The notes under the pieces were generated by a model that was not told the DNA's origin, did not search any database, and saw only the letters and a program-made list of their open reading frames with translations. A stretch of 64,000 bases of DNA from Tipula vernalis (taxonomy: Eukaryota; Arthropoda; Insecta; Diptera; Tipulidae): positions 61,182,789 through 61,246,788 of the forward strand of contig OY282558.1 in assembly GCA_958295665.1 (NCBI GenBank), read 5' to 3'. The translations under genes and the position numbers were made by a program. Each line of letters opens with the position of its first letter. The first letter of the stretch is position 1. Positions 14,913 to 48,279 of the stretch are shown one piece after another.

Positions 14913-15603
14913 CTATAGCCCTTTGCTACATCCTGAACGAAGGATTCCCAACTCCCTGGACCACCATACCGGTTTCTGCTTCCCTTTAGGTATTCTCTTG
15001 GGGCATGCAGTGTCCAAGGACAAGTTGCAGGCGCTTTTGATTTCTCCCACCAGGAAATCCAACTTCTTCTCTGTGGCTGGGGGCTTCGGAGCATCGATCG
15101 GTAAGAGTCCTACTAACACTTCCCCGTATTTGTTCCAGTTAGTCCTTCTAGGATTGAGAAGGAGTGTTCCTTCGCCACCCTCCATTCTTTGACCATATGT
15201 GTAATGGAGTCTGATGCAAAGGTAACATCCAGTACGTCCTGCCTGTTACTAATAATAAAAAAAGGCTCTTGCCCCAGATTACACACTGCAAGGTTAGTAC
15301 CCAATAAGTAATCAAATAAGTATTCACGCCTATCATTGATGTTGGTGCTACTCCAGATTGTATGATGCGCATTTGCGTGACAACCTAGTACTACTCCGAT
15401 CTTTCCCCTTCCGCTTCGAGTATCAGTTCCCCAAGGTTATCCGGCGGAACCTCCTTCTCTCGGTCCATATAGGCTGAAACCAGCCATAGTAAGCAGCCTC
15501 CCGTCTCCAGGCTGACTGCCATTACGTCTCCACTACTATATTGTGGAAGAAGAAAAATACTCAAGTTATTTTCCATGATAGATACTGATAAAGTTAGGCG
15601 CAA
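14913..15603 (-). pseudogene. LINE 2 AP-like endonuclease and linker fragments
   Basis: Four overlapping frames (15603-15391, 15372-15148, 15304-15113, 15185-14913) give the end of an apurinic-type endonuclease. They include LETGGCLLWLVSAYM, a region that reads HANAHHTIW-like in one frame, and a DVLDVTFASDSI segment equivalent to the SDH-preceding TLDLT box. The linker PVWWSRELGILR joins it to RT. The N-terminal half of the endonuclease is missing. Frameshifts every 100-200 bases show strong decay. Confidence 0.7.
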
Positions 15604-15859
15604 GCAGAAAGTCGATTACACAGATTGTGCTATCCCAGGCGAAATTAAAAAAATCTGGTCGTTGTCAGTCGATAGTGTTTAGAGAAAAATTACCAGCATT
15701 GAAAACTTTTGCCAATAGCCTTACGTGGCAAACTTTATCGAAGAAAATTGTGAAAAATCCACGGAATACAAAAAATATTTAAAATTGGAATAAAATCAGG
15801 CTCTAGATAGAGTGTGCTGGAAAGAAACACAGTTCTACTTTCGTGTTTGAAACCTGAGA

Positions 15860-16310
15860 AATCTTTTTTTTCCAGAGATATCAAACATAACACTCTAGAG
15901 GCTGGTTTTATACAAAGCTTCTAATAATTTTTGGCAAGTCGAATTTTCTTAGATTTTCCATCTAAAATTTGATCTGAATTTTGTTCCAGCGGTAGCTATT
16001 GACAAATCACACCACTGCATGCAATCTATTTTCACGCCGGACGAAATTCGAATTTTCCCGGTTTCCCACTTGAAAATTGATTTGATAGCTATTGACAAAT
16101 TGCATCAATGCAATCCATCTTCAGATGTAACAATTTAGAGGCAGATTTAAGTCAAAGTTTTTGGAAAGCGATAGCTGTTTACAAATCACATCAATGCAAT
16201 TGTTTTCAAGTCATAACACTCTAGATTTGTGAGAATTTTAAAAATTTTAGAATCCCGTATGGATTTCCACAAAGTGGAACGAGGTTTCTTCCAAGTATGA
16301 CTATTGACAA
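15860..16310 (+). repeat. Degenerate ~100-120-bp tandem repeat
   Basis: The phrase (G/T)(A/G)TAGCTATTGACAAAT followed by CA(T/C)CA(A/C)TGCA recurs near 15993, 16087 and 16168. The phrase CATAACACTCTAGA appears near 15887 and 16217, and GAGGC(A/T)G..TT near 15899 and 16138. At least three diverged units are present. Confidence 0.65.
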
Positions 16311-16559
16311 AAGCCTGCGTTGCTATTCGTGCATCGTTAAATATTATCGGCTGAAAACTTTATTTTCGGCTGGGATAACAATCTGCATTATCGACTTTTC
16401 ACTTTCGTTTAACTTTAACAAATAGGCTTGCATCACATGAAGTGAAATTTTTCGGCTTCTTATGGGATCGTAAAAAAAAGTGTCTGCCTTTAAAAACATC
16501 TAAATTTACGAAATATTTACTGGTTGAACTAGTTATTTGGGTTCGAGGAGAAACCCTCA

Positions 16560-19754: not shown

Positions 19755-19982
19755 TGGCTTTGCTCGTAACAAGAGTATTCGCTTTGATTTGACTTGATTT
19801 TGACTTTGGCTTTGTTTTCGACTTTTTCGTCTTTAATTCGACTTGGCTTCGAGTTTTGATTTTGATTTTATCTGTACTACTTCTGTCTTTGGTTGTGACT
19901 TTTTCAATTTGGCTTTACATATTCGGCTTTGTTCTACTTTGAAATCGATTTTGAATTTGGGCTGACCACGATTTTGACTTGG

Positions 19983-20172
<190 letters not shown>

Positions 20173-21110
20173 GTGGCCTTAGACAAGACTTGATTTTGAA
20201 ATTGACTTTGGTCAATCAATTTTGTTTTGACTACATGACTCTTACTTTGATTTCGTCTTTAATTCGACTTAATTTCGACTTTGATTTCTCCTTTAATTCG
20301 ACTTTTTTATTCGACTTTGACTTTGAATTTTGACTTGAATTTTATCAGCACTTCTCTCATTGGTTTTGGCTTTTTCTAATTTAACTTCACATATTCGACT
20401 TTGTTTTTAATTCAACTTAGATTTGGCTTCGACTTTGAAATCTATTTTGACTTTGTCTAACCACCATTTTGACTTGGTCTCCGACATTACTCTCACTTTG
20501 ATTTCGTCTTTAATTCGACTTGACTTGAATTTATCTTCGAGTTTGACTTCGATTTTTGACTTGGATTGTATCTGGACTTCTCTCATTGGTTTTGGCTTTT
20601 TATAATTTGGCTTCACATATTCGACTTTGTTTTAAATTCGAATTTGATTTGACTTCGAATTTGAAATTGATTTTGACTTTGGCTGACCACGACTTTGACT
20701 TTGTCCCTCTCTCTCCTTACCTAAGACAGGGCTTGATTTCGAAATTGACTTTGTTCAATCAATTATTGATTTCGTCTTTAATTCGACTTGACTTTGCTTT
20801 TTTCTTCGACTTTTACTTTGTATTTTGACTTGGATTTTATCGGCTTTGACTTCGATTTTGATTTGGTCTTTACTTCGACTTGACTTCAATTTATCTATTT
20901 ATATTGAGTTTTGACTTGGATTGTATCTGCATTTCTCTGTTTGGTTTTGACTTTGATTTCATCTTTAATTGGAGTTGACTTCAATTTATCTTCGACTTTG
21001 ACTTCGAGTTTTGACTTGGATTGAATTTGCACTTCTCTGTTTGGTTTTGGCTTTTTGACGTCGATTTTAAAATCGATTTTGACTTTGACTGACCACGACT
21101 TTGACTTTGC

Positions 21111-21111
<1 letters not shown>

Positions 21112-21156
<45 letters not shown>
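21112..21156 (+). repeat. (CT)n tract, about 45 bp
   Basis: Pure CT dinucleotide run sitting just before the CTTAGACAAG phrase at 21162, as the longer tract does before 20178. Confidence 0.95.
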
Positions 21157-21159
<3 letters not shown>

Positions 21160-24100
21160 ATCTTAGACAAGGCTTGATGTCGAAATTGACTTTGTTCGTT
21201 TTGACAACATAACTTCGCTTTTTTCTTTTACTTTGACTTAATGTTTTGACTTGGATTTTATCGGCTTTGACTTCGATTATTTAACTTTACGATCGAAATG
21301 TTGGCTTTTTCGACTTTGGCTTTGACTTCGACTTTGATTTCGTGTTTAACTTGACTTCAATTTATCTTCGACTTTGACTACGATTTTTGACTTGGATTGA
21401 TTGTACCTGTACTTCTCTCATTGGTTTTGGTTTTTTTCTAATTTAGCTTCACATATTCGACTTTGTTTTTAATTCAACTTTGATTTGACTTCGACTTTAA
21501 AATCGATTTTGGCTAAGGCAGACCACGATTTTGACTTGATCTTCGGCATGACTCTAACTTTGATTTCGTCTTTAATTCGAATTTCGCTTTTTTCTTCGAC
21601 TTTGACTTTGTATTTTTAACTTTGCCGACTTCGACTTTGCCTTCTATTTAGACCTTGAATTCGAAGTCAAAATTAAAATTAAACAACTTTAACCTTGACT
21701 TGGCTTTGTCTGAACTTTTGACTTCGAATTTGACTAAGGGATCGTAATGATTCGGAATTTGATAAATATTTTATTTCGAATTTGAAATTAACTTCGGCTT
21801 CGAGTGTAATTTTGATTTGATTTAACTGTAATTTTGATATTACCATCGAATTTGAGTTCGGAATTGACTTAATTTTGGATTTAACTAAGACACCTTCCAA
21901 GTCTTTCAATTGAACTATGTGGTACTTTAGCTTAATTGATTGTTTCCATTGCTTCTAGAATGTTAGTATGCTGCAAATTGTAAATCACTTTGAGTTTTGA
22001 ATGGGATTTTACATTGGCTTCACATATTCGACTTTGTTTTCAATTCGATTTTGACTTTAACTGCCACGACCTTGACTTGGTCTCTCGCTCCCTCTTTCTT
22101 GGCCTTAGACAAGACTTGATTTCGAAATTGACATTGATTTTGACTTTTGCTTTGGATTTAACTTAACTTATGCCTTCAATTTTTTTTTTGACTTGGTTTT
22201 TGACATCGAGATCAACAAGACTCTTACTATGATTTCGTCTTTAATTCGACTTGATTTCGTTTTATTCTTCGACTTCGACTTTGATTTCGTCTATAATACG
22301 ACTTGACATCAATTTATCTTCGACGTTGACTTCAAATTTTGACTTGGATTGTATCTGCACTTCTCTCTTTAGTTTTGGCTTTTTTCTTTGACCACGACTT
22401 TTACTTGGTCTTCGAAATGACTCTCACTTTGATTTCGCCTTTGATTAGACTTGACTTTGCTTTTTACTTCGGCTTTGACTTTGTATTTTGACTTGGATTT
22501 TATCGGTTTTGACTTCAATAATTTAGCTTTAGGATCGAAATGTTGGCTTTGTCGACTTTGACTTTGATTTCGTCTTTAATTCGACTTGACTTCAATGTAT
22601 CTTCGAATTTGACTTTGAGTTTTGACTTGGATTGTATCTGCATTTCTCTGTTTGGTTTTAGCTTTTTCTAATTTGGCTTCACATATTCGGCTTTGTTTTT
22701 GAAATCGATTTTGACTTTGACTGCCATGACCTTGACTTGGTCTCTCCCTCTCTCTTTCTTGGTCTTAGACAAGACTTGATTTCGAAATTGACTTTGATTT
22801 TTACTTTGACTTTGGATTTAACTTAAATTATGCCTTCAATTTTGTTTTGTCTTAGTTTTTGACATCGAGATCATCATGACTCTTACTATGATTTAGTCTT
22901 TAATTCTACTTGATTTAGTTTTTTTCTTCGACTTTGACTTTGTATTTTGGCTTGAATCTTGTTGGCTTTGACATTGATGATTTAACTTTACGATCGAAAT
23001 GTTAGTGTTTTCAATTTTGCTTCGACTTTCATTTAGACCTTGAATTTGAAGTCGAAATTAAAGTTGAACAACCCTTACCACAATTTGGCTTTGTCTGAAC
23101 TTTTGATTTCGGATTTTACGTTGTCTTCTACTTTGAGTTCGGATTCAACTCAATTTTGAGTTTAGCTAAGACACCTTCCAGGTCTTTCAATTAAACTAAG
23201 ATTATAGAATTTTTATTCGTTTTGACATCAATTTTAATTTCGCAGTTGACTTGAATCTATCTGTATCTTTTCTTTTAATTTCGATTTCGGCTTTGAATTC
23301 GGATTGCATTTTATCTTCATTTCTGCTTTTGACTTCATCTTTAATGCAGGTTTCCCCTTTAATTTCGACTGGCCCTCTAAATTTATGAATTGTCATATAA
23401 ATTTGCTCCAGAAATTTAATCGACTTTAAATTGGAAATAAGGCCACAGTTGCGAATTTAGCCAGAATGACTTGGATAAATCATAAAATTAATGGAAATTA
23501 CATCAGAATTTTCTGACGCAAAAAAAAAAAATTAAATTAACATTTTTTGACCAAGTTTCCGAAGACGTTCTTTGGGAAATAAGGGAAACGGAAATGAAGG
23601 GAAATGAAGCCTTTAATACAACAAAAATTATTTTGGCTTTTTTTCCTTTTTGTGACGATGGTAAAAAATCCAAGTATTATTTCTGGCTTTTCCAAAAACG
23701 TAAAAGTTCAATTTCCAGCACTTTTTCCTAGGTATTTCTGCTACTTTGACTTGAGTTCATTACAGCGCTTTCAAGGCTTCGTTCGAACTTCGATTTCTTG
23801 CTTTTTATAGACTTTGGATTTGACTTCTCCTTTAACTTCGATTTTGCTTTATATTTGTCTTTAATTTGGATTTGAATTTGAGTCTGAGTTCGCTTTACAC
23901 TTTGAGTTATTTTACACTTATCTGCTGTCTCCTTTTCTTTTTATTTCAAATTGGTCTTCATTTTTAATTTTAATATTGTCTTTGATTTGACTTCACATTT
24001 TTCTTTGAGTTGTTTTAACTTCAAGATCAAGTTCTTGACTTCGACTTTAATTTTAATTTATCTTAAACATTGATTTTGGCGATAATTTCGTTTGCGGCTT

Positions 24101-33934: not shown

Positions 33935-36609
33935 TTAGAAATTATTTTTAATAAAATCAAAAACCAAAGATTTAAATTTTGATAAAGGTCTTGCACTTCT
34001 AATCTCAACCGGAACCCTATTCCAATTTGTAAAAGTTGTAAACAAGGGTGAGTTATTGTAGACATTGGATCGGTTGGCTGGCAGAATTATGCTGCCATTG
34101 CGAATAGATCCAATTTTTATTTTATTGTATAAGTACAAAGGAACCCGATTATTAATAATTTTATATAGTAGTAGCATCGCTCTATAATAAAAGAACTGAA
34201 TCATTGTGCAGCCGAGCAATTCCTTAAACATTGCAGAAATATGATCATATTTCCTTAATCCGTTGACATACCTCACAATATTATTCAGAGTAACTTGTAG
34301 AATATTGCAAGAAATCGAGTCACAACTTAAATACAGGAATTCACAATATAATACATGGGGTATTACTAATGATTTCGAAAGCAAAACCCGAATATTTTTG
34401 GGACATATGTGTTTATGAAGCTTCAGTCCATATAAAATAGAATTAATTTTATTACAAACATTAATGACTTGAGAATCCCAGGTAAATCTACTGTTAATAC
34501 AGATTCCAAGGTTATTTACATGATTTAGAAATGGAATTTTTATATTATTAATAAAGATATCAGGAATAATTGAGAAATTATTCCTAGAAATGAAAATTGC
34601 CTGTGTTTTTGCGATGTTCAATGAGATTCCATTCGATTTTGACCATACCAATATATTAGATAGATCTAGGTTAACATTATTGAAAATTTCCAGAATATTA
34701 TCACTAGTACCACCAAGATATAATTGACAATCATCAGCATACATGTGATATTTGGAATATTTTATTGCAAGCGGCAGATCGTCTATGAACAGGGAAAATA
34801 ACGTTGGGCCAAGAATGGTTCCTTGAAATACACCTGTCGGTATTCGTTCAGAACCCGATTCTTTACCATTTATGACTACTTTTTGATATCTTTCGGATAA
34901 ATAGCTGTGCAAAAGCTTAAGGGATGTTTTATCAAAGTTAAAGAAAAGCAACAGCTTTTGTAATAACAGTATGTGATTTAGAGAGTCAAATGCTTTAGAG
35001 AAATCCAATAGTATTAACACGATAAACGAGTTTTTTTTGTCAAGATGGTGTGCAAGATCATCAACAACATGAATAGAGTGGTGCTAGTACTGTGATTATT
35101 ACGAAATCCAGATTGAAATTGGTTTAAATAATTATGCCTTACTAAATGCTGGCTGATCTGATCCCGGAGTATAATCTCGAAAACTTTAGATAAAATCGAT
35201 ACCAGACTAATCGGTCTAAGGTTATCCAAGGAGTCGTTATTCTTTTTTTTCATTATGGGAATCACAATGTTTGTTTTCCAGATATCTGGAAATATAGACT
35301 GCATGATACAAATATTAATAAGGTAGGTCAATTGCGATACAATATGCGGTAAAATAGCCTTTAAGAATTTCAGATTAATTTTATCATGACCAGGCGAGTT
35401 AGATTTTATCTGATAAACAGCTTTGACAACGTCGATTTCACCGACACTACTAAAAGAGAAATACATTTGCTCAAAAGTGTTTGTAATGTCAAAGTTAGGT
35501 AGTGGAAGAGTGACAGACGCAGACTGTCCACCACAAAAATAACGGTTGATGACTGAGGGATCCATATCAGTTAAAATATCAGACTTACTTTTCCCCAATC
35601 CAACTCTGTGGATGTTATTCCAGATTCGTTTCATAGCTAGTTTACAGTTACCAAAGAAGTAACTCTGTTTAGAACTTCTTATCAAGCTGGTTACTCTGTT
35701 GCGTTCAATGCGATATAACTCCAGGTACTTTAAGTTGGATGATCTTTTATATTTAGCAAACGCTCGGTCCCTCACTGACATACTTGTAGTGATACGGTTA
35801 TTTAGCCACGGAGCCACAGATTCGTTATCTACTATTTGCTTAATAGGAACACAATTATTATGGATGTCATACAGGCAGTCATAAAATGATTAGAATAAAG
35901 AGTTGACGTTATAAGTCGAATGCATAAAGCTCCAATTAAAATTCGAAAAATAATTCATGATCAACTCTGTGTACAATTGGTTATAGTCGTAGATATGTTT
36001 GTATTCAATTTTCACACGGTTTAATTTAACTTTATACGAAATGACGAGTAAGTCATGGTCAGATATATCTGGAAGATTATATTGACTAGACCTTACAACC
36101 CTAAAGTAATCCGACTCAGATACAATAAATTGATCAAGCCCAGCTCCACCACGGGTTGGTGAAAATGGAACCGAAATTAAGTGGTTAACTTTTAAAAGAT
36201 CGTGAAATTTGTGCGAGTTAGCGAGCATATTAATATTCATATCCTAGCCTATAATGAAATGACTATAGTTTGAAACATGTGAGGAGAGGATTTCCTGGAA
36301 ATTATCTAAATCGGCTTGCACTGGTTTTTTAGGTATGTAACAGACAACAATCAAAACAGTAATTGAAGGAAGTATTAGTTCAGCCATCAGAACTTCAATA
36401 ATACCATAAGTAGAAGAATGAACGAGCTTAACCTTAAACCATTTCTTATAGTAGAGACAAACGCCTCCGCCAATTTTATGCGTTCTGTCATATCTCAAGA
36501 TGTTATAACCGTTCAGCGCAACAGATTCATTATTAATTCTATTAGTGAGCCAAGTTTCTGCAACACAAAATATGTCAAGATTTTGTTTACTGATAAATAT
36601 TCTTAATTG
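33935..36609 (-). pseudogene. LINE B ORF2: endonuclease and RT (main part)
   Basis: Read downward from 36609 the frame continues QLRIFISKQNLDIF, CVAETWLTN and KIGGGVCLYYKKW (endonuclease), with the SDHDLLVISY box near 36050. A TAG at 36244-36246 and a TAA near 35890 are in-frame nonsense codons. APWLNNRI starts the linker. RT follows: NSPGHDKINLKFLKA, WKTNIVIPIMKKK, NLRPISLVSILSKVFE. A frameshift near 35080 precedes LLDFSKAFDSLNH. GVFQGTILGP (normally GVPQG) and HMYADDCQLYLGG hold the catalytic box. The thumb and C-terminal RVPVEIRSA..SKFKSLVFDFIKNNF are complete to the stop at 33935. Confidence 0.88.
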
Positions 36610-36618
36610 GTCGATATG
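36610..36618 (+). repeat. 9-bp target duplication GTCGATATG, left
   Basis: The nine bases lie immediately outside the foldback here and again at 44383-44391. Neighbouring bases on both sides differ. They encode the HID codons of LINE B ORF2 on the minus strand. Confidence 0.92.
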
Positions 36619-36868
36619 ATACTATTAAAGTTAGCCGAAAGTTTTCAGCCGAAAGATATAAAATGTCGGTAATGCAGATAGTGTCTTGGCTATATCAGCC
36701 GAAAGTTACCAGCCGACATATTTCAGCCGAAACATATTTTAAATAAAATGAAAAAATAACAAAACAACCGAGAAACTGGTATTTTCATGAAGTGAATTTA
36801 CGGCTGAAAAAGGCTTATTTTGGTTTGTCGCTGTTTACCATAGGAATTATACTTAAAATTTCATCAGA
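36619..36868 (+). repeat. Left terminal inverted repeat of the foldback
   Basis: From TTAAAGTTAGCCGAAAG (36625) to about 36868 the sequence matches the reverse complement of 44131-44376 with only two differences noticed (one A-run length, one T/C). The outer six bases (ATACTA) do not match the other end (ACCTTG). The word AGCCGA(A/C)A is repeated five times (about 36632, 36648, 36702, 36716, 36729) plus one inverted TTTACGGCTGAAA (about 36801), a pattern expected of transposase-binding subterminal repeats. Confidence 0.9.
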
Positions 36869-38312
36869 AAAGCTAAATATAAAATTAAAAAATTTGTATA
36901 AATTCAACCTTTAAAGTGTCATGTCTAGAAAGTATTTCAATTAATGTGCCTACCCAACAATTATCCCTTGAAAAATTATTAGGGCAAGTTTCATGTGGGG
37001 AGCTCGGGAAAATTGGTTTGAATGAAAAGCCCATGTAAAATTAAAAAATTGTATAAATTGAACCTTTAAAGTGTCATGTCTGGAAAGTATTTCAATTAAT
37101 GTGCCTACCCAGCAGTTATTCCTAGGAAAATTATCAGGGCAAGTTTCATGTGGGGAGCTCGGGAAAATTGGTTTGAATTAAAAGCCCATGTAAAATTAAA
37201 AAAATTGTATAAATTGAACCTTTAAAGTGTCATGTCTGGAAAGTATTTCAATTAATATGCCTACCCAGCAGTTATTCCTAGGAAAATTATCAGGACAAGT
37301 TTCATGTGGGGAGCTCAGGAAAATTGGTTTGAATGAAAAGCCCATGTAAAATTAAAAAAATTGTATAAATTGAACCTTTAAAGTGTCATGTCTGGAAAGT
37401 ATTTCAATTATTGTGCCTACCCAACAGTTATTCCTAGAAAAATTATCAGGGCAACTTTCATGTGGGGAGCTCGGGAAAATTGGTTTGAATGAAAAGCCCA
37501 TGTAAAATTAAAAAAATTGTATAAATTGAACCTTTAAAGTGTCATGTCTGGAAAGTATTTCAATTAATGTGCCTACCCAGCAGTTATTCCAAGGAAAATT
37601 ATCAGGACAAGTTTCATGTGGGGAGCTCGGGAAAATTGGTTTGAATTAAAAGCCCATGTAAAATTAAAAAAATTGTATAAATTGAACCTTTAAAGTGTCA
37701 TGTCTGGAAAGTATTTCAATTAATGTGCCTTCCCAGCAGTTATTCCTAGGAAAATTATTAGAACAAGTTTCATGTGGGGAGCTCGGGAAAATGGGTTTGA
37801 ATGAAAAGCCCATGTAAAATTAAAAAAATTGTATAAATTGAACCTTTAAAGTGTCATGTCTGGAAAGTATTTCAATTAATGTGCCTACCCAACAGTTATT
37901 ACAAAAAAAATTATCAGGACAAGTTTCATGTGGGGAGCTCGGGAAAATGGGTTTGAATTAAAAGCCCATATAAAATTAAAAAAATTGTATAAATTGAACC
38001 TTTCAAGTGTCATGTCGGAAAGTATTTCAATTAATGTGCCTACCCAGCAGTTATTCCTAGGAAAATTATCAGGACAAGTTTCATGTGGGGAGCTCGGGAA
38101 AATGGGTTTGAATGAAAAGCCCATGTAAAATTAAAAATATTGTATAAATTGAACCTTTAAAGTGTCATGTCTGGAAAGTATTTCAATTAATGTGCCTACC
38201 CAGCAGTTATTCCTAGAAAAATTATAAGGGCAAGTTTCATATGGGGAGCTCGGGAAAATTCGAATTAATTAAAAGCCCATATAAAATTAAAAAAATTGTA
38301 TAAATTGGACAT
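36869..38312 (+). repeat. Left foldback array: about nine 156-bp units
   Basis: The AAAGCCCAT anchor recurs at 37025, 37181, 37337, 37493 and onward every 156 bases to about 38273. Each unit contains TTTAAAGTGTCATGTCTGG, CAATTAATGTGCCTACCCA and TTTCATGTGGGGAGCTCGGG in this order. The first unit (36869) is the most divergent (AAAGCTAAATATA) and joins the terminal repeat. Confidence 0.95.
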
Positions 38313-41300
38313 AACACTTTAAAGGTTCAATTTATACAATTTTTTTAATTTTATATGGGCTTTTCATTCAAACCAATTTTCCCGAGCTCCCCACATGAAA
38401 CTTGCCCTGATAATTTTCCTAGGAATAACTGCTGGGTAGGCACATAAATTGAAATACTTTCCAGACATGACACTTTATAGGTTCAATTTATACAATTTTT
38501 TTAATTTTACATGGGCTTTTCATTCAAACCAATTTTCCCAAGCTCCCCACATGAAACTTGCCCTGATAATTTTCCTAGAAATAACTGTTGAGTAGGCATA
38601 TTAATTGAAATACTTTTCAGACATGACACTTGAAAGGTTCAATTTATACAATTTTTTTAATTTTATATGGGCTTTTATTTCAAACAAATTTTCCCGAGCT
38701 CCCCACATGAAACTTGTCCTGATAATTTTCCTAGAAATAACTGTTGAGTAGGCATATTAATTGAAATAATTTCCAGACATGACACTTTAAAGGTTTAATT
38801 TATACAATTTTTTTAATTTTACATGGGCTTTTCATTCAAACCAATTTCCCGAGCTCCCCACATGAAACTTGCCCTGATAATTTTCCTAGGAATAACTGCT
38901 GGGTAGGCACATTAATTGAAATACTTTCCAGACATGACACTTTAAAGGTTCAATTTATACAATTTTTTTAATTTTATATGGCCTTTTAATTCAAACAAAT
39001 TTTCCCGAGCTCCCCACATGAAACTTGCCCTGATAATTTTCCTAGGAATAACTGCTGGGTAGGCATATTAATTGAAATACTTTCCAGACATGACACTTGA
39101 AAGGTTCAATTTATACAATTTTTTTAATTTTATATGGGCTTTTAATTCAAACAAATTTTCCCGAGCTCCCCACATGAAACTTGCCCTGATAATTTTCCTA
39201 GGAATAACTGCTGGGTAGGCACATTAATTGAAATACTTTCCAGACATGACACTTTAAAGGTTCAATTTATACAATTTTTTTAATTTTATATGGGCTTTTA
39301 ATTCAAACAAATTTTCCCGAGCTCCCCACATGAAACTTGTCCTGATAATTTTCCTAGAAATAACTGTTGAGTAGGCATATTAATTGAAATACTTTCCAGA
39401 CATGACACTTTATAGGTTCAATTTATACAATTTTTTAATTTTACATGGGCTTTTCATTCAAACCAATTTCCCGAGCTCCCCACATGAAACTTGTCCTGAT
39501 AATTTTCCTAGAAATAACTGTTGGGTAGGCACATTAATTGAAATACTTTCCAGACATGACACTTGAAAGGTTCAATTTATACAATTTTTTTAATTTTATA
39601 TGGGCTTTTAATTCAAACAAATTTTCCCGAGCTCCCCACATGAAACTTGTCCTGATAATTTTCCTAGAAATAACTGTTGAGTAGGCATATTAATTGAAAT
39701 AATTTCCAGACATGACACTTTAAAGGTTCAATTTATACAATTTTTTTAATTTTACATGGGCTTTTCATTCAAACCAATTTCCCGAGCTCCCCACATGAAA
39801 CTTGCCCTGATAATTTTCCTAGGAATAACTGCTGGGTAGGCACATTAATTGAAATACTTTCCAGACATGACACTTTAAAGGTTCAATTTATACAATTTTT
39901 TTAATTTTACATGGGCTTTTCATTCAAACCAATTTTCCCGACCTCCCCACATGAAACTTGCCCTGATAATTTTCCTAGGAACAACTGCTGGGTAGGCACA
40001 TTAATTGAAATACTTTCCAGACATGACACTTTAAAGGTTCAATTTATACAATTTTTTTAATTTTATATGGGCTTTTAATTCAAACAAATTTTCCCGAGCT
40101 CCCCACATGAAACTTGTCCTAATAATTTTCCTAGAAATAACTGTTGAGTAGGCATATTAATTGAAATACTTTCCAGACATGACACTTGAAAGGTTCAATT
40201 TATACAATTTTTTTAATTTTATATGGGCTTTTAATTCAAACAAATTTTCCCGAGCTCCCCACATGAAACTTGTCCTGATAATTTTCCTAGAAATAACTGT
40301 TGAGTAGGCATATTAATTGAAATAATTTCAAGACATGACACTTTAAAGGTTCAATTTATACAATTTTTTTAATTTTACATGGGCTTTTCATTCAAACCAA
40401 TTTGCCGAGCTCCCCACATGAAACTTGTCCTGATAATTTTCCTAGAAATAACTGTTGGGTAGGCACATTAATTGAAATACTTTCCAGACATGACACTTGA
40501 AAGGTTCAATTTATACAATTTTTTTAATTTTATATGGGCTTTTAATTCAAACAAATTTTCCCGAGCTCCCCACATGAAACTTGTCCTGATAATTTTCCTA
40601 GAAATAACTGTTGAGTAGGCATATTAATTGAAATAATTTCCAGACATGACACTTTAAAGGTTCAATTTATACAATTTTTTTAATTTTACATGGGCTTTTC
40701 ATTCAAACCAATTTCCCGAGCTCCCCACATGAAACTTGCCCTGATAATTTTCTTAGGAATAACTGCTGGGTAGGCACATTAATTGAAATACTTTCCAGAC
40801 ATGAGACTTTAAAGGTTCAATTTATACAATTTTTTTAATTTTACATGGGCTTTTCATTCAAACCAATTTTCCCGACCTCCCCACATGAAACTTGCCCTGA
40901 TAATTTTCCTAGAAATAACTGTTGAGTAGGCATATTAATTGAAATAATTTCCAGACATGACACTTTAAAGGTTCAATTTATACAATATTTTTAATTTTTC
41001 ATGGGCTTTTCATTCAAACCCATTTTCCCGAGCTCCCCACATGAAACTTGCCCTGATAATTTTCCTAGGAATAACTGTTGGGTAGGCACATTAATTGAAA
41101 TACTTTCCAGACATGACACTTTAAAGGTTCAATTTATACAATTTTTTTAATTTTACATGGGCTTTTCATTCAAACCCATTTTCCCGAGCTCCCCACATGA
41201 AACTTGTTCTGATAATTTTCCTAGGAATAACTGCTGGGAAGGCACATTAATTGAAATACTTTCCAGACATGACACTTTAAAGGTTCAATTTATACAATTT

Positions 41301-44130
41301 TTTTAATTTTATATGGGCTTTTAATTCAAACAAATTTTCCCGAGCTCCCCACATGAAACTTGTCCTGGTAATTTTCCTAGAAATAACTGTTGAGTAGGCA
41401 TATTAATTGAAATACTTTCCAGACATGACACTTTAAAGGTTCAATTTATACAATATTTTTAATTTTACATGGGCTTTTCATTCAAACCCATTTTCCCGAC
41501 CTCCCCACATGAAACTTGTCCTGATAATTTTCCTAGGAATAACTGCTGGGAAGGCACATTAATTGAAATACTTTCCAGACATGACACTTGAAAGGTTCAA
41601 TTTATACAATTTTTTTAATTTTATATGAGCTTTTAATTCAAACAAATTTTCCCGAGCTCCCCACATGAAACTTGTTCTGATAATTTTCCTAGGAATAACT
41701 GCTGGGAAGGCATATTAATTGAAATACTTTCCAGACATGACACTTTAAAGGTTCAATTTATACAATTTTTTTAATTTTACATGGGTCTTTTCATTCAAAC
41801 CAATTTTCCCGAGCTCCCCACATGAAACTTGTCCTGATAATTTTCCTAGAAATAACTGTTGGGTAGGCACATTAATTGAAATACTTTCCAGACATGACAC
41901 TTGAAAGGTTCAATTTATACAATTTTTTTAATTTTACATGGGCTTTTCATTCAAACCAATTTTCTCGAGCTCCCCACATGAAACTTGCCCTGATAATTTT
42001 CCTAGAAATAACTGCTGGGTAGGCACATTAATTGAAATACTTTCCAGACATGACACTTTAAAGGTTCAATTTATACAATTTTTTTAATTTTACATGGGCT
42101 TTTCATTCAAACCAATTTTCCCGAGCTCCCCACATGAAACTTGCCCTGATAATTTTCCTAGGAATAACTGCTAGGTAGGCACATTAATTGAAATACTTTC
42201 CAGACATGACACTTTAAAGGTTCAATTTATACAATTTTTTTAATTTTACATGGGCTTTTCATTCAAACCAATTTTCCTGAGCTCCCCACATGAAGCTTGT
42301 CCTGATAATTTTCCTAGGAATAACTGCTGGGTAGGCACATTAATGGAAATACTTTCCAGACATGACACTTTAAAGGTTCAATTTATACATTTTTTTTAAT
42401 TTTACATGGGCTTTTAATTCAAACCCATTTTCCCGAGCTCCCCACATGAAACTTGTCCTATTAATTTTTCTTGTAATAACTGTTGGGTAGGCACATTAAT
42501 TAAAATACTTTCCAGACATGACACTTTAAAGGTTCAATTTATACAATTTTTTTAATTTTACATGGGCTTTTCATTCAAACCCATTTTCCCGAGCTCCCCA
42601 CATGAAACTTGTTCTGATAATTTTCCTAGTAATAACTGCTGGGAAGGCACATTAACTGAAATACTTTCCAGACATGACACTTTAAAGGTTCAATTTATAC
42701 AATTTTTTTAATTTTCATGGGCTTTTAATTCAAACCCATTTTCCCGAGCTCCCCACATGAAACTTGTCCTGATAATTTTTCTAGGAATAACTGTTGCGTA
42801 GGCACATTAATTGAAATACTTTCAAGACATGACACTTTAAAGGTTCAATTTATAAAATTTTTTAAATTTTTTATTGGCTTTTCATTCAAAGGAATTTTCC
42901 CGGGCTCCCCACATGAAACTTGTCCTGATAATTTTCCTAGGAATAACTGCTGGGTAGGCACATTAATTGAAATACTTTCCAGACATGACACTTTAAAGGT
43001 TCAATTTATACAATTTTTTTAATTTTATATGGGCTTTTAATTCAAACGAATTTTCCCGAGCTCCCCACATGAAACTTGCTCTGATAATTTTTCAAGGGAT
43101 AATTGTTGATAAGACACACTAATTGAAATACTTTCCAAACATGACACTTTAAAGGTTGAATTTATACAATTTTTTTAATTTTTTATGGGGTTTTCGTTCA
43201 AAGGAATTTTCCCGGGCTCCCCACATAAAACTTGCCCTGATAATTTTTAGAGGAATAACTGTTGGGTAGGCACATTAATTGAAATACTTTCCAGACATGA
43301 CACTTTAAAGGTTCAATTTATACAATTTTTTTAATTTTACATGGGCTTTTCATTCAACCGCATTTTCTCGAGCTCCCCACATGAAACTTGCCCTGATAAT
43401 TTTCCTAGCAATAACTGTTGGGTAGGCATATTAATTGAAATACTTTCCAGACATGACACTTTAAAGGTTCAATTTATACAGTTTTTTTAATTTTACATGG
43501 GCTTTTCGTTCAAACCAATTTTCTTGAGCTCCCCACATGAAACTTGCCCTGATAATTTTTTTAGGAATAACTGTTAGGTAGGCATATTAATTGAAATACT
43601 TTCCAGACATGACACTTTAAAGGTTCAATTTATACAATTTTTTTAATTTTATATGGGCTTTTAATTCAAACCAATTTTCCCGAGCTCCCCACATGAAACT
43701 TGCCCTGATAATTTTCCTAGGAATAACTTTTGGGTAGGCATATTAATTGAAATACTTTCGAGACATGACACTTTAAAGGTTCAATTTATACAATTTTTTT
43801 AATTTCATATGGGCTTTTAATTCAAACGAATTTTCCCGAGCTCCCCACATGAAACTTGTCCTGATAATTTTTCTAGGAATAACTGTTGGGTAGGCACATT
43901 AATTGAAATATTTTCCAGACATGACACTTTTAAAGGTTGAATTTATACAAATTTTTTAATTTTATATGGGCTTTTCATTCAAACCAATTTTCCCGGGCTC
44001 CCCACATGAAACTTGCCCTGATAATTTTTCTAGGAATAATTGTTGGGTAGGCACATTAATTGAAATACTTTCCAGACATGACACTTTAAAGGTTGAATTT
44101 ATACAAATTTTTTAATTTTATATTTAGCTT
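38313..44130 (-). repeat. Right foldback array: about 37 units of 156 bp, inverted
   Basis: The same unit is present in reverse complement; the ATGGGCTTTT anchor recurs every 156 bases from 38355 to about 44122. Variant units recur: the shortened CAATTTCCCGAG form at 39464 and 39775 reappears at 40398 and 40709, exactly 934 bases (six units) later, so a six-unit block has been duplicated. Units toward the outer end (42800-44100) are more divergent, for example at 42880, 43090 and 43190. Confidence 0.95.
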
Positions 44131-44382
44131 TTCTGATGAAATTTTAAGTATAATTCCTATGGTAAACAGCGACAAACCAAAATGAGCCTTTTTTCAGCCG
44201 TAAATTCACTTCATGAAAATACCAGTTTCTCGGTTGTTTTGTTATTTTTTCATTTTATTTAAAATATGTTTCGGCTGAAATATGTCGGCTGGTAACTTTC
44301 GGCTGATATAGCCAAGACACTATCTGCATTACCGACATTTTATATCTTTCGGCTGAAAACTTTCGGCTAACTTTAACAAGGT
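44131..44382 (-). repeat. Right terminal inverted repeat of the foldback
   Basis: Reverse complement of the left terminal repeat, ending CTTTCGGCTAACTTTAA at 44376 followed by six unmatched bases. The inverted words TTCGGCTG and TCGGCTGG mirror the AGCCGAAA words of the left end. Confidence 0.9.
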
Positions 44383-44391
44383 GTCGATATG
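44383..44391 (+). repeat. 9-bp target duplication GTCGATATG, right
   Basis: Second copy of the nine bases at 36610-36618. Confidence 0.92.
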
Positions 44392-44556
44392 GCAGAACAA
44401 ACTGCGAGCATTGATGAATCCAAAGTCTACACATGTAGCGTTAGTAACATTACCAAGCTTAGATGACCGGTTTGGTATTGATGACGAGTTCAGATTGAGA
44501 ATAGAATCCGCAAATGACCTAAAATATAAAAACAGATTTAAAAGCAATTCAAACAA
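44392..44556 (-). pseudogene. LINE B ORF2, N-terminal end
   Basis: From an ATG at 44556 the frame reads through a Ser/Asn-rich leader to FINARSLFCH, the NARSL-type start of the endonuclease domain. It is cut by the foldback and continues at 36609. The space to the ORF1 stop (44642) is about 85 bases. Confidence 0.82.
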
Positions 44557-44641
44557 ATTAAAAAATTTAACATATAGAACATAACTAATACTACAGTTGC
44601 CCGGAAAATTGGTGAAATTATGAATATTGCTGTTAAGCTTA

Positions 44642-45385
44642 TTATGCTGGCAATGTTGCGGTGTCGGGAAATCTCCGTGAGCGTCGAAAGTTGATAAATG
44701 GTTTTACAGCGCATTCCAAAGGCCAAATACTTCCATCATAGGCCTTCTCGAAAACTGCGGAATCCAAACCAACTTTGAATGAAATGAAATTCAGCAAACT
44801 TCTATCAGCCGATTTAGAGACCAACTCGTGACACTCAATTTCCGCCACTGGAACTTGCAGTTTGTTATGGAGGTGTTTTTTAATGTCGTCGCAGGTAGTC
44901 GATGGTTTAAAATTTGAGGCATGTAGAAACTTTTTGGGTTTTACTATCTCTAGCTGAGTATTCGTATTATCGGTGCCAGAAATGACTATTTGTTGTTTTT
45001 TAGAATTGTCAGTCGAATTGACGCTTAGTGCCGCTGTATTCGTAGTATTAGGACTTGCAACCAGGTTACTTATAGCTTGGAAATTGGCGAATAAATTATT
45101 CAACAAGCTGCTGACCTCATTCAACTGGGCCATCAACGTTTGGATCAGATGTTGATGATTGCTGTGGTTACTTAAGCAGTCAGCACAAACAAATTGAATG
45201 TTTACATTGTTATTGCACAGTTTTGCATTGGCGTTTGATAACGAAGAGCAACCAAAATGGAACATTTTCTCGCACCCACCAAAGCATTTTAGTACGTTGT
45301 TATCAGTGAACGCAACTTCACATTTATTGCATTTGTTTTTATTCATGTTGCAATTGACAAACTCAAACAACAGCACCAAAAACAA
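44642..45385 (-). CDS. LINE B ORF1: PHD-finger RNA-binding protein
   Basis: An intact frame of 247 codons encodes a LINE ORF1 protein, expected to bind element RNA. A PHD-like zinc finger spans about residues 19-70: CNKCEVAF, CFGGCEKMFHFGC and FVCADC. A predicted coiled region with LIQTLMAQLNEVSSLLNNLF follows, then a Ser/Thr/Asn linker and an RRM-like part with PKKFLHASNFKPSTTCDDI, SFKVGLDSAVFEKAYDGSIW and RRSRRFP near the end. The first ATG gives a hydrophobic leader; the ATG at 45346 (MNKNKCNKC) may be the true start. The frame has no stop or shift, unlike ORF2 of the same copy. Confidence 0.8.
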   Translation of the reverse strand: MFLVLLFEFVNCNMNKNKCNKCEVAFTDNNVLKCFGGCEKMFHFGCSSLSNANAKLCNNNVNIQFVCADCLSNHSNHQHLIQTLMAQLNEVSSLLNNLFANFQAISNLVASPNTTNTAALSVNSTDNSKKQQIVISGTDNTNTQLEIVKPKKFLHASNFKPSTTCDDIKKHLHNKLQVPVAEIECHELVSKSADRSLLNFISFKVGLDSAVFEKAYDGSIWPLECAVKPFINFRRSRRFPDTATLPA

Positions 45386-45750
45386 AAAATAAAAAGTACG
45401 TCACGTGTACAGTTCGATGTATATGGTACGAGTTCACTAAATACAGTTGTAAATAGAATGAGTTATTGTTGATAAAATGTATCTTCACAATGATAAAATG
45501 CCGTTTCACAGAACAGAAAATCACTTTAAAATGTTTTATTACATAAATTTTTAGATATATTGCACTATTTGATAACCAGACTGAATGTAAGGATATAAAA
45601 CTAGTTACCACTCACAAAACTAATCCTTTGATCAATACCGAAATTAATATAATATTTGTTTTTGTTATTTTTAAATAATCAAAATACTTTGAGCACAGAA
45701 AAAATTTTACGTCCGCACACAATGAATGCACAATAATTTTTTTTCAAATC
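45386..45750 (-). other. LINE B 5' untranslated region
   Basis: AT-rich sequence between the target duplication at 45751 and the ORF1 start. No coding motif is seen. Any internal promoter would lie here. Confidence 0.6.
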
Positions 45751-47489: not shown

Positions 47490-47787
47490 CATCTATCTCA
47501 TACTGAACTAACACAGTTATATACTTAACAAAGTTTAACAAAATTACAAATCCTCCGATTGGTAAAACCCTCTTCTGGATAATGTGGCTCATATTTAGAC
47601 TTACATGACTTATTTAGCCAAAACCTTGCCCAAATCTCTGGTGAGCTGGTTAATGGGCCATTGACAAGATTCCAAATCCTCCGTTTCGAAAAAACTTGTT
47701 CTGGATACTGTGCCTTATACCTCGGCTTGTATTACCTATATAGCCGAATATTATACAAATCTCTGGGAGTGCTTGTTAATTGACCAT
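47490..47787 (+). repeat. ~124-bp tandem repeat, about 2.5 copies
   Basis: A(T/A)TCCAAATCCTCCGTTTCG recurs near 47667 and 47791, and in altered form near 47541. TTCTGGATA(A/C)TGTG, TATTTAGCC/TATATAGCC and CAAATCTCTGG follow in the same order in successive units. Confidence 0.75.
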
Positions 47788-48273
47788 CAAGATTCCAAAT
47801 CCTCCGTTTCGAAAAAACTTGTCGAATGACTCTGTTTGTTAACTTTAGGTATGTTTATATATGTATCGCAGCCACAGAAATCTATGCCTGCTGCTGCGAA
47901 CGGAAAAGGTGGTTCCACTCTATCTAGGGGGTAGTGAACCCATTATTCGTTGAGTCATCCTAGGTTGTTATTTTAAACATATAATGCACCGTCGAAATAC
48001 CTGCTTTGCAACATCTTTATCACTAATGATCAAGATTCCAAATCCTCCGTTTCGAAAAAACTTGTCGAATGACTCTGTTTGTTAACTTTAGGTATGTTTA
48101 TATATGTATCGCAGCCACAGAAATCTATGCCTGCTGCTGCGAACGGAAAAGGTGGTTCCACTCTATCTAGGGGGTAGTGAACCCATTATTCGTTGAGTCA
48201 TCCTAGGTTGTTATTTTAAACATATAATGCACCGTCGAAATACCTGCTTTGCAACATCTTTATCACTAATGAT
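47788..48273 (+). repeat. Perfect 243-bp tandem duplication
   Basis: Bases 47788-48030 and 48031-48273 appear identical on reading, from CAAGATTCCAAATCC to TCACTAATGAT. Copy 1 begins inside the last unit of the 124-bp repeat. It is either a recent duplication or an assembly duplication. Confidence 0.93.
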
Positions 48274-48279
48274 CCAATA

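What the first reader, a model, noticed from the sequence alone, without database searches (positions are those of the whole stretch)
36619..44382. A 7.76-kb foldback transposon built from 156-bp satellite-like repeats
Near-identical ~240-bp terminal inverted repeats enclose only one 156-bp unit, arrayed in opposite directions. It is flanked by a 9-bp direct duplication. It therefore appears to have moved, or grown in place after moving, as a transposon whose body is a satellite. FB elements and Tetris of Drosophila are known parallels; whether this is a known family cannot be judged without a search.
Basis: partly seen in the sequence, partly recalled or inferred. Interest (0 to 1): 0.92.

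Follow-up and report, generated by a model that had tools for sequence, protein, structure and literature searches.

The report
Satellite-armed foldback of Rehavkus-type transposon
A piece of DNA made almost entirely of about 46 copies of one 156-letter repeat is a genuine jumping gene that landed inside another jumping gene, and the same genome holds related full-length copies that carry a likely transposase gene between the same repeats.

Summary
Window 36619-44382 is a 7,764-bp foldback element: imperfect TIRs, 9.2 and 37.3 copies of a 156-bp unit in opposite directions, no middle, an exact 9-bp target duplication. It interrupts a non-LTR retrotransposon; removing it leaves an open frame. 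It belongs to a large family: a 31-bp end has 311 exact places in its 1.27-Gb genome, the reversed control none. Of 30 end pairs read, 21 have exact 9-bp and 3 exact 8-bp duplications; all 30 carry the same two different 6-bp ends. Lengths run from 0.5 to 21.6 kb. One 20.4-kb copy holds an open 1,157-codon frame between its arms; three such copies exist, each flanked by opposed arrays. A second subfamily (gene 62% identical, its own diverged unit) has the same anatomy. Published features of Rehavkus, relatives of Mutator elements, fit best, including a beetle member with a 164-bp satellite in its inverted termini; Repbase/Dfam could not be searched. Array length probably changes mostly in place; this is not proven.

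The parts
36610..36618 (+). left copy of the 9-bp target site duplication GTCGATATG
36619..36624 (+). left-type terminal 6 bp, ATACTA (not mirrored at the other end)
   Evidence: the same two end types in all 30 end pairs
36625..36875 (+). left terminal inverted repeat, with a repeated AGCCGA motif
   Evidence: one search counts AGCCGA five times and CAGCCGAAA three times in 36619-36923
36876..38307 (+). left arm: 9.2 copies of the 156-bp unit
38298..38340 (.). arm-to-arm junction at 38307/38308, no middle domain; the same kind of junction occurs in three other insertions (L017, L011, L1516)
38308..44120 (-). right arm: 37.3 copies of the 156-bp unit; its inner part (units R21-R36) has a 6-unit (about 936 bp) period, a region chosen after inspection
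44121..44376 (-). right terminal inverted repeat
44377..44382 (-). right-type terminal 6 bp, ACCTTG read inward
44383..44391 (+). right copy of the 9-bp target site duplication
33935..45400 (-). non-LTR retrotransposon (endonuclease and reverse transcriptase) that the element interrupts in its endonuclease region; broken elsewhere by in-frame stops and a frameshift
15582..16424 (.). worn copy of the second subfamily: two terminal arms alike, three unit remnants on the minus strand, a weak one in the left arm; no target duplication recognisable by eye

Best explanation
The feature is a non-autonomous copy of a cut-and-paste DNA transposon family of Rehavkus type (relatives of Mutator-like elements). 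Shown: the copies read have two imperfect inverted termini with different outermost 6 bp, arms of 156-bp units behind them pointing at each other, and mostly a target duplication of 9 (rarely 8) bp. Full-length copies carry between the arms an open frame of 1,157 codons, related to two database proteins with Ulp1-like (C48) and PHD-like regions and sharing conserved acidic residues with them; the window copy has lost all of it. Inferred: that protein, made by other copies, binds the termini (and perhaps the units), cuts out and inserts array-only copies such as this one, here into a dead non-LTR retrotransposon. Inferred from unit comparison: the copy arrived as a foldback core with an inherited arm-to-arm junction and some units, and its arms then lengthened and shortened mostly in place by unequal exchange and segmental duplication, with occasional exchange between arms that flips the core.
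For: Ends, duplication and arrays. Empty site: insert plus one duplication is 7,773 bp, a multiple of 3, and the flanks join into an open frame of 228 codons. Family: 157 forward and 154 reverse exact places of a 31-bp end, 0 of the reversed pattern. 30 end pairs: 21 exact 9-bp, 3 exact 8-bp, 2 with 8/9, 1 with 7/9, 3 without at their own ends (two of these, L015a and L1516, share TTAAAATTG at their outer sides). Array body of the longest copy, 21.6 kb: 5 of 5 samples are units. Coding copy: C1 211.21 Mb, 20,393 bp, exact duplication GGTATCACG, opposed arrays on both sides of the gene. Three open 1,157-codon copies, 99-100% alike, each with opposed unit arrays. Homologues P0121 and P0122: C48 E 1.7e-10 and 4.5e-14, PHD 2e-5 and 0.0021; P0122 to MULE PF10551 E 0.0013. 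Published Rehavkus features. Second subfamily with the same anatomy and 9-bp duplication CGTATGTGA. Shared junction types in 9 of 14 middle-less copies. Nearest unit in the same copy for 80-95% of units in L018, L019, L024, L025, L1516.
Against: The 1,157-codon protein itself has no Pfam match to MULE or C48; its best matches are Sec7-like_HDS (E 0.0057, below cut-off) and PHD (E 0.14), and solved structures give nothing of use. P0122's MULE match is below Pfam's cut-off. No Rehavkus sequence could be compared. Growth in place is not proven: the nearest unit lies in the same copy for only 42% of units in the window copy, 23% in L013 (24 units), 18% in L011, 31% in L017, 49% in L020, 57% in L012 (all above the share expected by number). 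The 6-unit period holds only in the region chosen after inspection (0 of 2,000; whole arm 146 of 2,000; 180 of 300). Units next to a shared junction are mostly no more alike than other units, so descent of junctions rests on their exact positions. Joining the flanks did not raise the Pfam endonuclease score (26.7 against 27.2 bits).
Confidence: 0.8

Rival explanations
1. The same transposon family, but arrays are carried whole from site to site and little grows in place (a variant of the best explanation, so the odds overlap).
For: Units of different copies share variants; L011 and the 13-kb copy L1516 share four-unit stretches 98.4% alike; the L010-L018 pair shows lowered divergence next to the shared junction; copies with exact duplications reach 21.6 kb.
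Against: No multi-unit run between different copies beat shuffled unit order: the best 15 pairs were tested, each with at least 8 of 100 shuffles as good. L018 has nearly the same arm sizes as the window copy (9.2 and 38.3 units) but differs at 481 of 7,761 aligned bases, as unrelated units do. Only about 20 of several hundred copies were read inside, so a parent copy may have been missed.
Confidence: 0.2
2. A FLYWCH/Phantom-type Mutator foldback (like Tm1 or Muta1), not Rehavkus.
For: 8-10 bp duplications, composite termini with tandem repeats, and different short motifs outside the inverted repeat are described for Tm1; Muta1 is called a type 2 foldback.
Against: No FLYWCH or SWIM-finger match in the protein or its two homologues, whereas the homologues have PHD and C48 matches (P0122 has a weak match, E 0.017, to the RNase H-like part of ZSWIM proteins); unit size and a satellite in inverted termini match Rehavkus-1_TC.
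Confidence: 0.12
3. An assembly artefact: two unrelated satellite arrays joined head to head.
For: Long arrays are prone to misassembly; raw reads were not available.
Against: Exact 9-bp duplications in 21 of 30 pairs, an open frame across the empty site, the same junctions at different sites.
Confidence: 0.03

Closest known systems
Rehavkus-1_TC of Tribolium castaneum (Repbase; described in PMC10218199, passages seen)
   Same: DNA transposon with a satellite unit of similar length (164 bp, TCsat23) in its inverted termini
   Different: arrays there are mostly 5 and 8 units and no longer than nine in that assembly; here one arm holds about 80 units (L1516) and the longest copy about 135 by its length. 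Sequences could not be compared.
Rehavkus group as a whole (PMC6446971, passages seen)
   Same: 9-bp duplication, TIR 26-400 bp, one ORF, PHD finger, minisatellite, arthropod hosts
   Different: the minisatellite is described before the 3' TIR; here arrays lie behind both ends. A C48 region is not mentioned in the passages seen.
Tetris of Drosophila virilis (PMC4079207: abstract, Results part 1 and Discussion part 1 seen)
   Same: foldback with a variable array of one unit (about 220 bp) in its TIRs, 8-10 bp duplications, arrays expanding within the element to satellite size (up to 66 units)
   Different: only three complete copies were found, with a middle domain, and no coding partner; the authors suggest that larger arrays may have disrupted transposition. 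Here large arrays lie inside copies with both ends and exact duplications, and coding copies exist.
Tm1 of Meloidogyne (PMC3169594: passages and Discussion part 1 seen)
   Same: 9-bp duplications and two different short end motifs outside the inverted repeat
   Different: 13-15 bp repeats; FLYWCH/MULE transposase

Membership tests
Rehavkus | 9-bp target site duplication | tested here: met
   21 of 30 end pairs exact 9 bp, 3 exact 8 bp; second subfamily 9 of 9, read from the output
Rehavkus | TIR of 26-400 bp | tested here: met
   about 250 bp before the first unit
Rehavkus | one ORF with MULE-related DDE transposase | tested here: inconclusive
   one open frame of 1,157 codons; no MULE match itself; homologue P0122 PF10551 E 0.0013, below cut-off; D449, D528, C574-x2-H577 and E756 invariant in three proteins (reading them as catalytic is recalled knowledge)
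Rehavkus | PHD finger in the transposase protein | tested here: inconclusive
   E 0.14 in the protein itself, 2e-5 in P0121, 0.0021 in P0122
Rehavkus | minisatellite near the 3' TIR | tested here: met
   156-bp unit arrays on both sides of the gene in three open copies
Rehavkus | sequence similarity to a described Rehavkus element | not testable with these tools
   Repbase and Dfam are not held
Foldback elements (structural class; FB, Tetris) | long inverted arms made of tandem units, variable length | tested here: met
Foldback elements (structural class; FB, Tetris) | sequence kinship with FB or Tetris | not testable with these tools
   their sequences are not held
Phantom/Tm1-type MULE | FLYWCH or SWIM zinc finger | tested here: not met
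   no such match in the protein (E up to 1) or in P0121 and P0122 (E up to 10; only the RNase H-like part of ZSWIM1-3 in P0122, E 0.017). The table says Phantom can also lack a finger, so this weighs little.
Free satellite DNA | long arrays outside transposon ends | tested here: inconclusive
   96 of the 100 listed exact unit places lie in or beside copies with exact ends; 1,856 places in all, only 100 listed

The most novel reading that the evidence does not exclude
The roughly 155-bp unit is a working, co-inherited part of the transposon rather than a passenger satellite: two transposase subfamilies (62% identical) each keep their own version of the unit in the arms (75% identical over 231 bases), the subfamily-2 unit carries the CAGCCGAAA motif of the termini (the 156-bp unit does not), and arm length is a dial (more binding sites) that unequal exchange turns up to satellite scale, with arms exchanging and flipping the core. 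Such elements would be self-mobile satellite nurseries.
Probability: 0.3. Interest if true: 0.75.

Novelty: new member of a known kind. Interest (0 to 1): 0.55.

Why it matters
Foldback elements with satellite arms have been proposed as a source of satellite DNAs, but for Tetris no coding partner was found. Here one genome holds array-only copies, deletion derivatives, open coding copies and a second subfamily, so one can ask directly how arms grow, whether the unit is needed for movement, and when arrays escape to become free satellites.

Tried and rejected
Moved-whole test by the look-alike copy L018: the arrays are not alike in order. Collinear runs between copies: none beyond shuffled order among the best 15 pairs. 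Arm-to-arm collinearity inside the window copy: not significant (134 of 2,000 same order, 722 of 2,000 opposite). Origin of the unit from the outer TIR: weak (24 of 500 shuffles as good). Position-specific kinship of outer units between copies: no clear pattern. Exact unit pattern in viral and prokaryote collections: 0 places each. Rfam at gathering scores: 0 matches. Six short sequence words in the paper library: 7 papers, unrelated by title. Tc1-like reading of a 401-bp piece in L021, L028 and L026: no Pfam match for five peptide pieces at E up to 1. Structure prediction of P0122 with P0121: mean pLDDT 30.3, useless, not searched.
Full report
Observation. The element at 36619-44382 is present as described. 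GTCGATATG flanks it on both sides; the TIRs from 36625 inward differ by 1 of 249 aligned bases plus one indel, while the outermost 6 bp differ between the ends (ATACTA and ACCTTG). The body is 9.2 units one way and 37.3 the other, 44 complete units of 154-157 bp, meeting at 38307/38308 without any other sequence. Mean difference between units is 5.2% within the left arm, 6.4% within the right and 6.0% between arms. The two TIRs of the window copy are unusually alike: over 23 copies the mean difference is 3.1% within a copy and 3.4% between copies, so TIR identity does not date the insertion.

Insertion site. The flanks read as one minus-strand non-LTR retrotransposon. Taking out the element and one duplication leaves one open frame of 228 codons through the site; the Pfam endonuclease score is not raised by the joining (26.7 against 27.2 bits), though the match starts 5 profile positions earlier. 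The retrotransposon is broken elsewhere by stops and a frameshift (my reading).

Family in the genome. The window lies in a 1.27-Gb genome of 340 contigs, host not named. Of the 120 listed relatives of another retrotransposon in the window, the five that bear an organism name are from insects. A 261-bp terminal query had 1,747 candidates, 40 scored, 41 matches. The 31-bp end occurs 157 times forward and 154 times in reverse, control 0. I read 20 regions chosen from the matches, and both ends of ten more pairs on C1; the first 100 places hold 19 facing pairs within 22 kb by my count, 5 of them already in hand, and of the other 14 I read ten. In 30 end pairs, window copy included, one end is ATACTA and the other ACCTTG each time, and 21 have exact 9-bp, 3 exact 8-bp (L023, L026, L031/032), 2 one-mismatch (L014, L027) and 1 two-mismatch (L022) duplications; 3 have none at their own ends (L015a, L020, L1516). 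L015a and L1516 share TTAAAATTG on their outer sides, as if two copies and the 710 bp between them had moved together. L021 was left out because no right end was found. Shuffled pairings gave a mean of 0.79 and at most 5 of 30 with 8 or more bases alike. Lengths run from 507 to 21,638 bp; in the longest, 5 of 5 samples are units; in four others (15 samples) 12 are fully units, one partly, and two are the middle of the coding copy.

Coding copies. The 20,393-bp copy at C1 211.21 Mb has opposed unit arrays on the two sides of a 4.8-kb middle with one open frame of 1,157 codons, first Met at codon 18. Its right arm beyond L069 was seen only in three 500-bp samples, all units. The genome has three such open copies, 99-100% alike, and many broken ones (60 matches; 40 of 1,612 candidates scored); all three have opposed 156-bp arrays on both sides within the loci returned. 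The target duplication was read for the C1 copy only. L026, L015a and L025 keep 0.5-0.7 kb of that middle at 86-94% identity, as deletion derivatives would. Two database proteins are related (26 and 24% identity; a profile search found the same two), with C48 and PHD matches and a sub-threshold MULE match in one. The protein itself has no C48 or MULE match; its best Pfam match is Sec7-like_HDS, E 0.0057, below cut-off, then PHD, E 0.14; five sub-threshold matches to solved structures are of no use.

Second subfamily. A gene 62% identical at C2:274.32 Mb, with three stops, lies between arrays of a diverged unit (174 of 231 aligned bases identical to the 156-bp unit), with ends ATACTG and ACCCTG and the duplication CGTATGTGA, read from the output. 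The worn copy at 15582-16424 in the window fits this unit (score 129.5) much better than the 156-bp unit (53; highest shuffled score 47.5 and 46.5). Its right end (0 of 500 shuffles) and left end (5 of 500) resemble the element's TIR, and its two arms resemble each other (0 of 500); the unit trace in its left arm is weak (19 of 500). So unit and gene diverged together in the two subfamilies seen.

How the arms change. Of 15 candidate junctions looked at, L025 was dropped because its arms do not meet. Among the other 14, 9 fall into three junction types shared by different insertion sites: window, L017, L011 and L1516; L010, L018 and L013; L009 and L012; five are single (L019, L020, L022, L024, L027). 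In L011, L1516 and L013 the junction is turned round relative to the ends. That is expected if foldback cores are inherited through transposition and arms sometimes exchange. Arm lengths differ widely within a type, and unit order is not shared beyond shuffled order in the 15 best pairs. The nearest unit lies in the same copy for 0.80-0.95 of units in L018, L019, L024, L025 and L1516, but only 0.42 in the window copy, 0.23 in L013, 0.18 in L011, 0.31 in L017, 0.49 in L020 and 0.57 in L012. Of ten arms tested for a period, L025 (14 units; 1 of 300 shuffles as good) stands out; L011, L012, L013, L020, L024 and L1516 are weaker (19-29 of 300), L018 (59), L017 (126) and the window right arm (180) are not significant; only the inner part of the window arm, chosen after inspection, has a clear 6-unit period (0 of 2,000). 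Growth in place is therefore the better but not a proven reading.

Filing. Published Rehavkus elements have 9-bp duplications, 26-400 bp TIRs, one ORF, a PHD finger and a minisatellite (PMC6446971, passages); Rehavkus-1_TC has a 164-bp satellite in its inverted termini, mostly 5 and 8 units, none longer than nine in that assembly (PMC10218199, passages). In the passages seen, a 2026 survey of arthropod MULEs uses Rehavkus as an outgroup (PMC13359780). Two features are inconclusive here (MULE domain, PHD in the protein itself) and direct sequence comparison was impossible, so I file it as Rehavkus-type, a new member of a known kind, notable for arrays about an order of magnitude longer than reported for the beetle element. 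That I found no description of this family rests on the searches in an open-licence library only; Repbase and Dfam may hold it.

Noticed in passing
window 15582-16424: worn, 843-bp copy of the second subfamily, with no recognisable target duplication
   Followed up: yes
window 47786-48274: 243-bp sequence repeated twice in tandem at 100% matches
   Followed up: no
L015 and L016 (C2:272841258-272856967): two copies of the family with 710 bp between them share TTAAAATTG at their outer flanks, like a composite that moved as one
   Followed up: partly
L021 932-1333, L028 8294-8695, within L026 1343-2467: shared 401-bp piece between the arms; one reading resembles a Tc1-type transposase by eye (recalled motif), without Pfam support
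   Followed up: partly
L020 9376-9901: a copy whose outer flank is itself an array of units, as if inserted in another copy's array
   Followed up: no
window 19800-23100: long stretch of degenerate CTTTGATTTCG-like tandem repeats and CT runs
   Followed up: no
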